From assembly GCA_018969485.1 (NCBI GenBank), contig JAGWYG010000025.1, forward strand, positions 1 to 37,232: a DNA stretch of 37,232 nucleotides, read 5' to 3'. This document shows positions 365-23,497 of the stretch, piece by piece (the stretch's first letter is position 1; each line of letters opens with the position of its first letter). The translations under genes and the position numbers were made by a program. Under the pieces are notes generated by a model. The model ran no database searches. It was not told the DNA's origin and saw nothing but the letters and a program-made list of their open reading frames with translations. Source of the stretch: Chloroflexota bacterium (GTDB lineage Bacteria > Chloroflexota > Chloroflexia > Chloroflexales > Roseiflexaceae).

Positions 365-689
365 GTTCTAGCCCTCCTGCCCGGTTGTCGACTGCAGCAC
401 GCGTGGTGCGAGCGGTGCGTGGTTGTCATGGCTGCCATGACGATTGTGTGAACATTGCCAAACGTCATGAGTTTGGTGCAAAACATTCATGAATGCCGCC
501 TGTTTTGTTGATTGTTCATGATCATTCATTTTGTACACGACATCAGGATGTTTCGAGAAGCCAGCGATCGATCGTACCGGAATTGACGATTCATTGCTGT
601 GATGAATCACTCGTGCAGTGATCACGATGAACAGCCAATGGAGCGCTACTCGGTTCATACTGGCTCATTTCCCCAGATATTTTCGGTCA

Positions 690-985
690 CACCACGACGA
701 ATCATCCTGCGGGCGAATGCCTGACCTTCAGCATAGATCGTCTTGAAGCGACTCGCAATACGCATTTCTACCCATTTTCTCTTGGCATCGGAAGCGCTCT
801 GTCAAATCTTGGCATAATTCCCTAATGACACTCATGAACTAGATTATGGACAGCAGACTGCCTGATGAGGCTATAGCTCCTGACCGAGTCATCTCAGCAA
901 ATCATCGGCCTGGATCGGCTGTTACGACAGTAAGCGTCCGAGTAGCCAGATCGCGTGCTGCCGGAATCTCTCTGAATCACTCGTC
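690..985. repeat. Degenerate noncoding duplication, copy 1
   Basis: This block resembles 1005-1285 in the same order. Anchor words include CACGACGAATC near the start, TTCAGCATAGA about 45 bases later, then CGCAATACG, a region around CTCCTGACCGAGTCAT, and CGAGTnnnCAGnTCGCG..GCCGG at the end. By eye the identity is modest with several gaps. Neither copy carries an open frame, so it looks like an old duplication of noncoding or decayed DNA. Confidence 0.4.
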
Positions 986-1004
986 ACAGTTTTGATCATC
1001 AATG

Positions 1005-1285
1005 CCACGACGAATCGCAGGTCAGTCAGACGCTCGCCTTTCAGCATAGAGTATCAGCATACGAATCGCAATACGAAGAAATGCGTATCATCGGGAGGAT
1101 TTCCGGGAAATATGGTTAATTTCGGGAATATGATCCAAACAATACTCATATACCAGGTCGTGAGCTATTCGATTCCTGTCGGAGTCATACATGATTCGCT
1201 GGCAGAAACGCGATTGGTGAGCCCAACCATAACACGAACGAGTCAATAGGTCGCGGTACGCCGGTATATGGCCAGATAACCCGTG
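1005..1285. repeat. Degenerate noncoding duplication, copy 2
   Basis: This is the second copy of the block at 690-985, offset by about 315 bases in direct orientation. It shares CACGACGAATC, TTTCAGCATAGA, CGAATCGCAATACG, a region around TTCCTGTCGGAGTCAT and GGTCGCGGTACGCCGG in the same order. No gene is recognised in it. Confidence 0.4.
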
Positions 1286-2152
1286 ATCAATGTACATGCA
1301 GGTCTGCTTTGCAGACCAACCACCGTGTGTGATCATGAGATTCGCCATCTGCAGGTTGCCGTGCTCGAAGCAGTTCGCCGGACCGATCTATCAAAACCAA
1401 ACAAACATCCCTAACAACACTCACAACTTCTTCTGCGCGAACGCCGGCAACCATTTGAGTTACTGGTCAAACCTGGCATCATGATCGCGTTGAGCAGCAA
1501 TATCACTGTATGTACTCGCCATGACTGCTCAATGTCAATTGATTAACTCTGTGCTCGATCGGCAATCTGAACCTGAGATTCATGGAGATTGGATCGTATA
1601 GATCTTGGTGATTGCATCACCAGCGGCGCTACCGGCCAGAAGTATTCGCCAGGCTAGCGGTGCGATCGGTTTCACCGAATGTCATGGAGCGAATCATTCG
1701 ACGTGGTGGCGCGAGTATCCGGCTGGAACGTGGGCATTCGCACCGAGCGGCAGATCAACCAGGCGATGATGACGACAGCAATGATCTCGTGATCGCCTGA
1801 CGATCGCGATCGCGCGATCATTGGCTGTTCCGGCATCAATGATCCGAACCTGGCGACGTCTGTGCAGCGATACCGCGATTCACCGATCAATCGTGCATCC
1901 CGGAGCTACTGACGACGCGGCGTCACCGACGGTCGTGTTCGCGCTCACATCGCGGCACAGGGTCTGGTACTGCCTCACCGGCCAGCGGGATCACGCGCAT
2001 CGTGTGGGCACAACGGCGGTCATCTGCCCGAGGGTGCACGCCGTGGCGCGCTGACTGCTGCAGCGCGTCGGCGGCCAGGGTGACGCGCGACCGCGCACGT
2101 GTGTGAAGCCATGGCCGGCCGCAACCCGGCACCGCCACACCCTCGCGGCGGC

Positions 2153-20115: not shown

Positions 20116-20775
20116 ACCTGCTCCTCGGTTTCCTCGATCGATAGTGAGGCGCTGGGTGCCCGGCATGACCACGCCGCCGGGCCTCGCTGTGTGATACGTC
20201 GGTGATGCGCTGGTGGATGTCGCGGCGATGCGCGATGATCGCGGCCGGTCGGGCTCACCTGCCTCCCGGATCCGCAGTGCGCGACGGCGCGTCGTCTGGC
20301 TTCGCGGTCGGCGCAGCGGGGTGCTGGCCGCCCGGGCGCCGTCGGGCGCACATTGCCGCACGGGCTCCGCCGGTCGTTCGGCATACGCTCACCCGGCGTC
20401 CCGCACAGCCGCCGGCGTGATGTCGCTGGCGGTCATGCCTGGACTGTGGTGCTGGTGGCGTGGTCATTCGTGGCAGCGGCGCCATCTGGCGTGTGCGGCA
20501 CGAGGATCGCCGGCACGCGCGCCAATGCTGCTGCGAGGGATGCGACGCCCTGCCGCCGATCGCTGATGACCGCGATGCTGGCCAGGCTGGGCGCTCAGCA
20601 CGTGCAATCGAGATGAACGCACAGGATCAGTGTTTGTAGGGCGTGTGGCGGTCGTACGCATGCCTGGTGGAGTCGTGTTCCTCCTGGTAGAGCACCGATT
20701 CATGATGTGTGAATGTGTCTGACTGGCCGCACAGCAATTCGCTGCGCGCAATGCTTATCGCCTGGCCATGATCCG
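20116..20775. other. Gap between sigma factor and hydrolase genes
   Basis: This is a divergent intergenic stretch. I see no supported gene or RNA in it. Open frames are short, Arg-rich, and lack ribosome binding sites. It should hold the promoter of the sigma gene, which I cannot locate. Confidence 0.45.
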
Positions 20776-20784
20776 TGCTATAGT
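20776..20784 (+). promoter_or_regulatory. Extended -10 of the beta-lactamase-fold hydrolase
   Basis: TGC followed by TATAGT forms an extended -10 about 37 bases before ATG 20822. TTATCG 18 bases upstream is a poor -35. Confidence 0.52.
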
Positions 20785-20821
20785 GAAACACGGATCGATA
20801 TCTGGGGAAGGAGATCCAGCC

Positions 20822-21973
20822 ATGAGTGACCTCGATACCGTGTTGGACGACGCAGTCGCGGCAAACGATGTTCCTTTTCTCGTGGCCATGTCAGGAAGCT
20901 CCAGTAGCATCACGTGGTCCGGCGCAGCCGGCGAACGATCGCCTGGCGCCTCGGCGACGGTAGACACGGTCTTCCGTCTCTTCTCGATGACCAAGGCGAT
21001 CGGATCGACTGCTGCGATGATTCTGATCGATCGCGGAATGCTCAGCATGGATACGCCGGTGATCGAGGTCATCCCCGAGTTTGCCGGGATCCGGCTGCTC
21101 GAAGGCTTCGATACGGATGGCGCACCGCTGCTGCGCGCGCCGGGCAGGCAGGTGACGGTGCGTCATCTCGCGACCCACACGTCCGGCTTCGTCTACGAGT
21201 TCTGGAACACGGACATGCCGAAGTATCTCGCGGCAACCGGGCACCCGACCATTCTGAGCGGCCTCAAGGCGTCGCTGTCGTATCCGTTGCTGTTCGAGCC
21301 GGGCGAGCGCTGGGATTACGGTATCGGCATCGACTGGCTCGGTCAGATCGTTGAAGCCATCGATGGCCGCCGCGTTGATACGTTCTGCCGCGAGGAGATC
21401 TTTGGGCCGCTCGGCATGGTCGACAGCGACTTCGAGCCGAGCGAGCGCCTTGCTCCGCGCCTGGCAGCCGTCAAAATCCGCGGCGAAGATGGCTCTTTCG
21501 CTGATTTCAGCATCGCTCCGCCGCCGAACCCCGAAGTCTATGGCATGGGGCACCATATCTACTCGACTGCGCCCGACTACATGCGTTTTCTGCGCATGCT
21601 GCTCAACAAAGGCCAGCTCGATGGCAATCGTGTGCTCAGCGAGGCGGCAGTCGCGGCGATGCTGGCGAATCAGATCGGCGATCTGCGCGTCGGCAAACTG
21701 GTGTCGATCGCTCCTGCGCTGACGGCTGATGCTGAGTTCTATCCCGGCGTCCCCAAGACTCACAGCTTTGGCTTCGTTCGCGTCGAGGAAGATGTGCCCG
21801 GACGGTGCTCTGCTGGCTCACAGATCTGGGCCGGGGTGCTGAACATGCACTACTGGCTTGATCCGGCGCGCGACGTGGCGGCGGTGATCATGACCCAGTC
21901 GCTGCCCTTTGTCGAGCCGCGCTTCATGCAGGTGTACGAGCGCTACGAACGCGCTGTCTATGCCGGCATGTGA
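20822..21973 (+). CDS. Serine hydrolase, class C beta-lactamase/PBP4* family
   Basis: This is a serine hydrolase of the beta-lactamase (PF00144-type) fold. Members include esterases, D-aminopeptidases and lactone or amide hydrolases, so resistance to beta-lactams should not be assumed. It is 383 aa. The nucleophile is Ser55 with Lys58 in FSMTKAIG. The second motif Tyr is in RWDYGIGIDWLG (about residue 165), and the third motif is HSFGFVR near residue 318. The PGRQVTVRHLATHTSGF segment is typical. There is no signal peptide, so it appears cytoplasmic. ATG 20822 has AAGGAG upstream. It is monocistronic. Confidence 0.9.
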   Translation: MSDLDTVLDDAVAANDVPFLVAMSGSSSSITWSGAAGERSPGASATVDTVFRLFSMTKAIGSTAAMILIDRGMLSMDTPVIEVIPEFAGIRLLEGFDTDGAPLLRAPGRQVTVRHLATHTSGFVYEFWNTDMPKYLAATGHPTILSGLKASLSYPLLFEPGERWDYGIGIDWLGQIVEAIDGRRVDTFCREEIFGPLGMVDSDFEPSERLAPRLAAVKIRGEDGSFADFSIAPPPNPEVYGMGHHIYSTAPDYMRFLRMLLNKGQLDGNRVLSEAAVAAMLANQIGDLRVGKLVSIAPALTADAEFYPGVPKTHSFGFVRVEEDVPGRCSAGSQIWAGVLNMHYWLDPARDVAAVIMTQSLPFVEPRFMQVYERYERAVYAGM

Positions 21974-22603
21974 GTCGCCGACCGCGCTGACCCCATCTGT
22001 TGCACCGTGATGCCGTGGTTCTCTGGCGTGCCATGACGACGACCTGACGAACGCTGGCTTCACGCGCAGCCTGCTGGCGCGCGTCTGGCGTATTGATGCC
22101 GAGTCGCTCAGGAGTCGGCACGACGCGCATGTGCGACGCATCAGGCCAGGCGCTGGCTACACTGCATGGCTGTCATGTTCGATGAAGCGTGCTGGTGATG
22201 CACACACGCGCTATCCCCGCCGATCGCGCGTCATCGGCCGCGTCTGGTTGCCGCGGTTGCTTGTCAGGTCGCCGAGGCGCCGTCATCGCATGATCGCGTT
22301 CGACCTCACCGGGTCATGCTGAGCCCCGGTAGCGCATTCGCCGCAGATCAGCCGCTGCCACATCGCACCATGCCTGCCTCGCAGCATGCTGTACGTGTCG
22401 TATGTATGCCGCGATGCTACCATGCGATGCTGCTCTGTAGCCTGCCCAGCTCATCAATTGTGATGATTTTTGCTTGTCGATGATTATATCGGTGAGCAGT
22501 ATCTTCTATAATAATCTGGCGACCATCTGTTTGATGTATGCCGCATATGTCTGGAACGCGGTTGCGATCGATTGGTATTCGATGATTTAAGTGAGAATAT
22601 AGC
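21974..22603. other. Gap leading into the AT-rich island
   Basis: From 21974 to about 22430 the base composition is like the rest of the genome and I see no supported gene. From about 22430 it turns AT-rich, in step with the nuclease gene that follows. A short minus-strand frame (22417-22605) spans the AT-rich part but has no ribosome binding site or recognised family. Confidence 0.5.
22507..22512 (+). promoter_or_regulatory. Possible -10 of the nuclease gene
   Basis: A perfect TATAAT lies 91 bases before the nuclease ATG inside AT-rich DNA. Without a clear -35 and in such composition it could be chance. Confidence 0.3.
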
Positions 22604-23497
22604 ATGGTAAACTCAAATATCGCCAGTAACTTGTTAGAACGACTCGTTATTGCAGTTAAACGAATCGCTACTGCACTTAAGCGGATGATTGGCTGCTCTC
22701 AGCCGGAATCCACGATTATTGAACAACCTGCACGATCAATTGCCACACAATCGTTGCTGGATTTGCATAATCCTGTCAATTCAATACACCGATACATTTT
22801 GAGCAACGGTATTACGGTTCAGTCGTTTCGAACTGAACATGTTGAAGATACGCAAGTTAATCAAATGACCTGGTACATGGGTGAACGATTTAAATCGATC
22901 GAACCGTTTCTGGCAACGATCAAACGTCACATCAGTGGCGAAAAGTTTCGTTTTTCCATGGTGAATTTTCATCAGCGACAGATCAGTGATGTGTGCCAGT
23001 TTGCGATCATGGCTCACACACTAGGTTTTCTGACTCGCTATCAGTACTACTCGAAACAGCGTATAATTGTTGGGTGTGTTGCAGCTACTCCAAAGGTTCA
23101 GAATTTTTTTAATGGACTCTGGTTTGAGCGATACATTGTACAAAAAATCAACAAAATCATCAATTCGTATGAACAACATGTACAACAACGACTCAATATT
23201 GTAATGCTGGAAAACGTGATTATTATTCTCAATAATGGTAATCAGCGCGAAATTGACTTACTTATCTCAGTGAACGATGAAATATATTATATTGAAGCTA
23301 AAACCGGTGATATCGATGGAAGTTTCTATCAAAAATATAGAAAGATTGCTGGCTTCCTGGATATTCCGAACAAGCGAATGATTGTTGTGCGTGCCCGGAC
23401 GACTATGCATGAAACCTGCAATCATGGCGTGCTCGTGTGTTCAATCGGCGCATTCGAGCAACGGATGCGGAGCGTGTTCGATCGGCACGCGCGCTGA
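22604..23497 (+). CDS. Probable PD-(D/E)XK nuclease, DUF1887/Card1-like C-terminus
   Basis: This 297-aa protein is probably a nuclease. Its C-terminal half carries a PD-(D/E)XK pattern: Glu175 in FFNGLWFERYI, Asp218 in NQREIDLLI, and Glu231-Ala-Lys233 in IYYIEAKTG. The GxWFE-x(n)-EID-x(n)-EAKTG order is that of the nuclease domain in DUF1887/Card1 proteins. Residues 95-170 may form a winged-helix-like part. The N-terminus (1-60) is basic and shows no clear Rossmann CARF fold, so it is not a standard Card1. Both gene and upstream DNA are strongly AT-rich, unlike everything around it, which points to horizontal transfer. The ribosome binding site (GTGAGA) is weak. No CRISPR array or cas gene is in the window. 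The role, for instance in defence, is an inference. Confidence 0.7.
   Translation: MVNSNIASNLLERLVIAVKRIATALKRMIGCSQPESTIIEQPARSIATQSLLDLHNPVNSIHRYILSNGITVQSFRTEHVEDTQVNQMTWYMGERFKSIEPFLATIKRHISGEKFRFSMVNFHQRQISDVCQFAIMAHTLGFLTRYQYYSKQRIIVGCVAATPKVQNFFNGLWFERYIVQKINKIINSYEQHVQQRLNIVMLENVIIILNNGNQREIDLLISVNDEIYYIEAKTGDIDGSFYQKYRKIAGFLDIPNKRMIVVRARTTMHETCNHGVLVCSIGAFEQRMRSVFDRHAR

What the first reader, a model, noticed from the sequence alone, without database searches (positions are those of the whole stretch)
22430..23497. AT-rich island carrying an orphan DUF1887/Card1-like nuclease
A sharp composition change coincides with one gene. Its C-terminal half has the Glu175, Asp218, Glu231-x-Lys233 pattern of Card1-type PD-(D/E)XK nucleases, while the N-terminus lacks an obvious CARF sensor. 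It may be a stand-alone defence nuclease or an effector with a different sensing domain. This is the best candidate for an undescribed system here.
Basis: partly seen in the sequence, partly recalled or inferred. Interest (0 to 1): 0.6.

Follow-up and report, generated by a model that had tools for sequence, protein, structure and literature searches.

The report
CARF-less Can2/Card1-type solo nuclease
A solitary bacterial gene makes an enzyme with the DNA/RNA-cutting half of a known CRISPR-linked nuclease, but with the usual sensor replaced by a short helix; its relatives, found across many bacterial phyla, carry other front ends such as membrane anchors or zinc ribbons.

Summary
Confirmed: 22604-23497 (+) is an intact 297-codon gene at 42% GC in a 67% GC window. 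The predicted structure (mean pLDDT 89.8) shows that residues 57-293 match the whole part of Can2/Card1/Cdn1 behind the CARF domain (Z 17 to Can2). E216/D218 and E231/K233 sit at the positions whose mutation kills Can2 and Card1. No CARF is present: the frame is closed four codons upstream, and an amphipathic helix (3-30) and a disordered linker stand in its place.

New here: it is one member of a dispersed family (116 relatives in GTDB genomes) in which no CARF was found. The body is constant; the front ends swap (coiled-coil-like helix, membrane anchor, zinc ribbon, TerD). The genes are nearly always solitary. The own genome has neither Cas10 nor Cas1, and orthologues in Cas10-free relatives are under strong purifying selection (dN/dS 0.04-0.07). 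It is not a classical type III CRISPR effector, nor a recent insertion: a same-genus genome has the gene at the same place.

Most likely mechanism (inferred): a nuclease switched on by oligomerisation or recruitment through the N-terminal helix. Substrate, trigger and defence role are unproven.

The parts
22604..23497 (+). CDS of the CARF-less Can2/Card1-type nuclease, 297 aa plus stop
   Evidence: Intact ORF; PADLOC CARF4-PDDEXK E 9.4e-11; AF2 model pLDDT 89.8; Can2 Z 17.1
22610..22693 (+). N-terminal amphipathic helix (residues 3-30), in place of the CARF domain
   Evidence: AF2 helix 3-30, pLDDT 78-95 by block of ten; hydrophobic moment 1.84, reached by 0.12% of shuffles; aligns with the LERIAxALERIA-type helices of homologues
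22694..22771 (+). Disordered linker (residues 31-56)
   Evidence: pLDDT under 50 at 33-45 and low around it; variable in length and sequence
22772..23080 (+). Helix-strand segment (residues 57-159) N-terminal to the nuclease core; corresponds to the part of Can2 just behind CARF
   Evidence: VIA-align model 57-293 to Can2 139-365; hhalign from residue 60; strand pair 143-159
23081..23494 (+). PD-(D/E)XK nuclease core (residues 160-297) with E175, E216, D218, E231, K233
   Evidence: G171, W173, E175, D218, E231 and K233 invariant and E216 nearly so in 70 aligned sequences; E216/D218 align with SthCan2 E276/D278 (alignment; mutation data PMC7969007)
22430..22603 (.). AT-rich upstream stretch, probably non-coding; the open frame on the minus strand (22417-22605) is probably not a gene
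   Evidence: GC about 0.4; no homologue of the minus-strand frame in 29 other genomes of the order, no PHROGs or NCBIfam hit

Best explanation
The gene encodes a solitary, metal-dependent nuclease, probably without sequence specificity, made of the complete post-CARF body of Can2/Card1, from a lineage in which no member was found to carry the CARF sensor. In Can2/Card1/Cdn1, ligand binding to the CARF dimer brings two nuclease bodies together, which completes the substrate cleft and metal site. Here that job is most likely done by the N-terminal amphipathic helix: it oligomerises the protein, or docks it on a partner or membrane, and so controls when two nuclease bodies meet. Relatives use other front ends (membrane anchors, zinc ribbons, TerD, a possible TIR) for the same purpose. 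Once active it would nick DNA and/or cut single-stranded RNA, as a cell-autonomous stress or anti-invader response without cyclic oligoadenylate. Shown: fold (predicted with high confidence), catalytic residues, absence of CARF, solitary context, no Cas10 found in the genome, purifying selection on orthologues in related Cas10-free genomes. Inferred: activity, control by oligomerisation, substrate, defence role.
For: AF2 model with pLDDT 89.8 whose residues 57-293 match Can2 139-365 (Z 17.1), Cdn1 149-399 (Z 16.7), VC1899 (Z 14.6) and Card1 140-373 (Z 11.4); Foldseek gives the same family first. Profile comparison: P0001 60-261 aligns with the post-CARF columns of CARF-bearing proteins. Catalytic residues invariant in 70 aligned sequences. 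Closed frame upstream and no CARF match. N-terminal helix strongly amphipathic. Interchangeable N-terminal modules in the family. Solitary genes: neighbour strands about random (34/35 upstream, 27/38 downstream), no recurring neighbour except within closely related genomes or generic families. No Cas10 or Cas1 in this genome. dN/dS 0.04-0.07 in related Cas10-free genomes. cOA-driven nuclease-domain dimerisation in Cdn1: PMC12825302.
Against: No activity, oligomer or substrate data. A multimer could not be predicted here. Solitary context gives no partner that would name the trigger, and only a few neighbours elsewhere are defence genes. Absence from phage, plasmid and viral collections and conserved positions in related genomes are less typical of defence genes, which move often. 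Across the wider family 37 of 50 carrier genomes do hold Cas10-like sequence, so a link to type III signalling in other hosts is not excluded.
Confidence: 0.5

Rival explanations
1. A cellular DNA/RNA-processing or repair nuclease (like NERD, Bax1 or EndoMS-type PD-(D/E)XK enzymes) without a defence role, kept vertically in each lineage.
For: Conserved chromosomal neighbours across related genomes: Caloramator/Thermobrachium/Fervidicella, Roseiflexaceae genus g8, Thiomargarita, and the same-genus genome; strong purifying selection; no phage, plasmid or viral copies; weak NERD match and Bax1 among the lower structural hits.
Against: Patchy presence (8 of 60 relatives; 9 of 400 in the phylum), wide phyletic scatter in the tree and N-terminal module swapping are unlike a housekeeping enzyme.
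Confidence: 0.27
2. A degenerate remnant of a type III CRISPR effector cast adrift after losing CARF, as was proposed for VC1899.
For: Can2-type body without sensor and without CRISPR; one relative carries an in-frame TAG (L003) and another is a C-terminal fragment (L009).
Against: Catalytic residues are invariant over 70 divergent sequences; dN/dS 0.04-0.07; the CARF-less form is widespread, not a one-off truncation.
Confidence: 0.12
3. A type III CRISPR ancillary nuclease that works in trans and responds to cyclic oligoadenylate by another route.
For: Same nuclease family as Can2; 37 of 50 wider carriers have Cas10-like sequence; single members lie beside a Csx1, a Cas1 and an AAA-Csx3 gene.
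Against: No Cas10 in this genome, in its same-genus relative or in four other carriers, no Cas1 here, no CARF. In the order-level sample carriers have Cas10 less often (2/8 against 38/52, Fisher p 0.013, not corrected for kinship).
Confidence: 0.06
4. Recently inserted mobile cargo (an AT-rich island delivered by a transposon or phage).
For: Sharp GC change at both edges.
Against: The same position is occupied in a same-genus genome, with a coinciding AT minimum in the nuclease core; the flanking inverted repeat is at chance level (10 of 60 resamplings reach it); no relatives in phages, plasmids or viral contigs. An older acquisition in the genus's ancestor remains possible.
Confidence: 0.05

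Closest known systems
Can2 / Card1 (DUF1887; Pfam PF09002 Card1_endonuc), e.g. SthCan2 7BDV, TbCan2 8Q3Z, Treponema Card1 6WXW
   Same: Whole post-CARF body and PD-(D/E)XK active site (Z 11-17); E216/D218 = SthCan2 E276/D278; 31 of 70 family members match PF09002
   Different: No CARF domain, no type III CRISPR locus, short N-terminal helix instead; sequence identity only about 10-16% in the structural alignments
Cdn1 (9U49), Psychrobacter CARF ribonuclease
   Same: Nuclease body, Z 16.7 over 224 residues
   Different: Cdn1 is switched on by cA4/cA6 through CARF (PMC12825302); the window protein has no CARF
VC1899 of Vibrio cholerae (1XMX)
   Same: Orphan DUF1887 protein without a type III locus (PMC7969007); best Foldseek hit (E 1.6e-10)
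   Different: VC1899 still carries a CARF domain
PADLOC PDLC01131 'PD_DExK, same family as the one fused to CARF (1XMX)'
   Same: A domain of this nuclease family named without CARF is already catalogued; 5 of 39 family members match it
   Different: The window protein itself gives no match to it at E up to 1
NERD domain nucleases (PF08378)
   Same: Weak match to the nuclease core, E 4e-4, just under the gathering score
   Different: Structure and profile comparisons favour Can2; NERD does not account for residues 57-160

Membership tests
Can2/Card1 (DUF1887) type III CRISPR effector | PD-(D/E)XK nuclease domain of the Can2 fold with E/D...ExK active site | tested here: met
   E216/D218 and E231/K233 correspond to SthCan2 E276/D278 and the Card1 ExK (alignment, PMC7969007)
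Can2/Card1 (DUF1887) type III CRISPR effector | N-terminal CARF domain (Can2 residues 3-151) | tested here: not met
   Frame closed upstream; model aligns from Can2 139 onward; CARF4 profile matched only at 137-296 of 364
[quoted passage not shown]
   No Csm1/Cas10 or Cmr2 match in the own genome (assembly 95.6% complete), no Cas1
Can2/Card1 (DUF1887) type III CRISPR effector | Activation by cyclic oligoadenylate | not testable with these tools
   Needs biochemistry; no CARF to bind it
Can2-type nuclease body (superfamily level, CARF not required) | Post-CARF helix-strand segment plus nuclease core, conserved GxWxE, D, ExK | tested here: met
NERD nuclease (PF08378) | Score above the Pfam gathering threshold | tested here: not met
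   21.3 bits against 22.1
Anti-phage defence system | Recurring genomic association with defence genes or mobile elements | tested here: inconclusive
   A few single neighbours are defence genes; no recurring association; none in phages, plasmids or viral contigs
Anti-phage defence system | Protection against phage or plasmid in vivo | not testable with these tools
   Needs experiment

The most novel reading that the evidence does not exclude
A broad lineage of CARF-less Can2-type nucleases is an undescribed class of stand-alone conflict effectors in which the cyclic-nucleotide sensor has been replaced by interchangeable N-terminal modules (self-associating helix, membrane anchor, zinc ribbon, TerD, TIR-like). 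The nuclease would then be triggered by oligomerisation or recruitment rather than by a second messenger.
Probability: 0.35. Interest if true: 0.7.

Novelty: new variant of a known kind. Interest (0 to 1): 0.45.

Why it matters
Can2/Card1 are known as cyclic-oligoadenylate-gated effectors of type III CRISPR. A widespread related lineage that keeps the nuclease body but carries other front ends, in some cases in genomes without Cas10, suggests that the body is a general effector module that has been wired to several kinds of trigger. That makes a concrete question testable: can this nuclease be switched on simply by bringing two copies together? Named species among the carriers include Meiothermus taiwanensis, Thermobrachium celere and Caloramator proteoclasticus.

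Tried and rejected
1) CARF remnant upstream or elsewhere: none; the frame is closed and PDLC01880 finds only this gene in the genome. 2) Transposon ends: the best inverted repeat flanking the island is at chance level. 3) Minus-strand ORF 22417-22605 as a partner gene: no homologue in 29 other genomes of the order. 4) Phage, plasmid or viral origin: no relatives found. 5) Conserved neighbour or operon: clustering of 664 ORFs of the homologous loci showed recurrence only among near relatives or generic families; strand orientation about random. 6) Structure of the long N-terminus of L053: confidence too low to name a fold; TIR_2 match only E 0.039. 7) A tree separates the CARF-less rows from six CARF-bearing rows, but those six come from one subclade, so a single loss of CARF is not shown. 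8) A literature search for CARF-less Can2 relatives found none described, but many subscription papers are not held.

Full report
OBSERVATION. The window is 67% GC; 22430-23497 is 42% GC, clearly below any stretch of its length elsewhere in the window. It holds one complete ORF, 22604-23497 (+), 297 aa, with an in-frame stop four codons before the ATG, so nothing extends its N-terminus.

WHAT IT IS. Pfam gives only a sub-threshold NERD hit, NCBIfam and PHROGs nothing convincing, while PADLOC's CARF4-PDDEXK profiles match from residue 59 (E 9.4e-11). With an alignment of 70 sequences an AlphaFold2 model reached mean pLDDT 89.8: helix 3-30, a disordered linker, then a compact body 57-297. Foldseek ranks VC1899, Cdn1, Can2 and Card1 first. 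VIA-align puts model residues 57-293 on Can2 139-365 (Z 17.1, 198 aligned, 3.1 A), Cdn1 149-399 (Z 16.7) and Card1 140-373 (Z 11.4), with a clear drop from the Can1/Can2/Card1 group (Z 10.4 or more) to Z 7.3 below it. In Can2 the CARF domain is residues 3-151 and the nuclease domain 166-366 (PMC7969007). Profile-profile comparison with CARF-bearing proteins of the same order agrees (P0001 60-261 on columns 198-386 of 439, E 2.7e-6).

ACTIVE SITE. G171, W173, E175, D218, E231 and K233 are invariant and E216 nearly so in 70 aligned sequences, the others 15-38% identical to the window protein. In the alignment to Can2 E216/D218 fall on E276/D278, whose double mutation inactivates SthCan2, and E231/K233 on the ExK motif that was mutated in TsuCan2 (E302/K304; PMC7969007).

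FAMILY. A scan of GTDB genomes found 116 relatives and kept 80, in many bacterial phyla and one methanogen. No CARF family appears among the Pfam families that the scanned members match; 31 of 70 match PF09002 Card1_endonuc. The body is constant and the front end varies: of 74 usable members 26 have a LERIAxALERIA-type helix by pattern (others have leucine-rich helices that the pattern misses), 9 a membrane segment, 7 a CxxC-CxxC zinc ribbon, and 8 long N-termini, among them one TerD domain (L088, E 6e-50) and one possible TIR (L053, E 0.039). At least two of the 8 long N-termini (L050, L072) look like wrong start choices. Two rumen members carry a second, seemingly degenerate body in tandem (L074, L077), reminiscent of Can1. 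These class counts come from a simple pattern script.

CONTEXT. The genes are solitary: no neighbour family recurs apart from near relatives and generic families, and neighbours lie on either strand about equally. A few single neighbours are defence genes: a Csx1 at L054, a Cas1 at L037, an AAA-Csx3 at L057 (I assigned the loci by reading the sequences). No relative was found in phages, plasmids or viral contigs.

CRISPR LINK. The own genome (95.6% complete) has no Csm1/Cas10 or Cmr2 and no Cas1. Six of eight carriers among 60 relatives lack Cas10, against 14 of 52 non-carriers (Fisher p 0.013; kinship not corrected). Elsewhere 37 of 50 carriers do have Cas10-like sequence, without a matched control; judged by contig numbers and coordinates it is not near the gene, which I checked for part of them only. 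The gene is thus not dependent on type III signalling here, though a link elsewhere is not excluded. Orthologues in three related Cas10-free genomes (genus g8) are under purifying selection (dN/dS 0.04-0.07).

THE ISLAND. A same-genus genome has the orthologue (40% protein identity, 58% GC) at the same place, behind the same sigma-factor gene and a partly deleted beta-lactamase-like gene, with its AT minimum in the nuclease core as here. The AT-rich island is therefore probably at least as old as the split of the two species. Whether it entered their ancestor from outside, or an older copy was replaced, cannot be told.

MECHANISM. In Cdn1, cyclic oligoadenylate on the CARF dimer creates a nuclease-domain dimer interface, a substrate cleft and the metal site (PMC12825302). 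A CARF-less protein with the same body needs another way to bring two bodies together. The strongly amphipathic helix (moment reached by 0.12% of shuffles), which in relatives is exchanged for anchors or other modules, is the obvious candidate. This step is inference. The substrate (DNA nick and/or ssRNA) is inferred from Can2, Card1 and Cdn1.

COMPARISON AND NOVELTY. It probably works like Can2/Card1 at the catalytic end but is not a member of the type III effector family as defined (CARF and type III locus tested, not met). Orphan relatives are known (VC1899, which keeps CARF), and PADLOC lists a domain of this family without CARF. I found no description of the CARF-less lineage with swapped front ends in the papers held, but many relevant papers may be missing from that library. 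I rate it a new variant of a known kind.

Noticed in passing
L074:5175-9107 and L077:5635-8262: Two rumen homologues carry a second copy of the nuclease body in tandem whose ExK motif appears lost, a parallel to Can1's active/inactive pair.
   Followed up: no
L088:2872-4611: TerD domain (E 6e-50) fused in front of the same Can2-type body, followed by a likely membrane segment, in a Methylococcaceae genome.
   Followed up: partly
L046, L052, L056, L057, L059, L061, L062, L064, L070, L075 and G003 (L004:1360-2844): A conserved C-terminal extension of about 150-170 aa (motif 'LRPLPE') without a convincing Pfam match in the two members scanned singly (L046, L070), mostly in cyanobacteria and Chloroflexota.
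   Followed up: partly
L080, L084, L090, L093, L095, L096: A subclade with an N-terminal zinc ribbon (CxxCxxLREV...CPxC) in front of the nuclease body, in Gammaproteobacteria and Desulfobulbaceae.
   Followed up: partly
L003:1489-2418 and L009: Broken copies in genomes of the same family (genus g3): one in-frame TAG before the NFF motif; one C-terminal fragment only.
   Followed up: no
window 501-2000: Second AT-richer stretch (GC 0.48-0.57) without a convincing ORF.
   Followed up: no
window 20768-21973; L010 1583-1781: Beta-lactamase-like gene intact in the window but internally deleted in the same-genus genome, just upstream of the nuclease gene.
   Followed up: no
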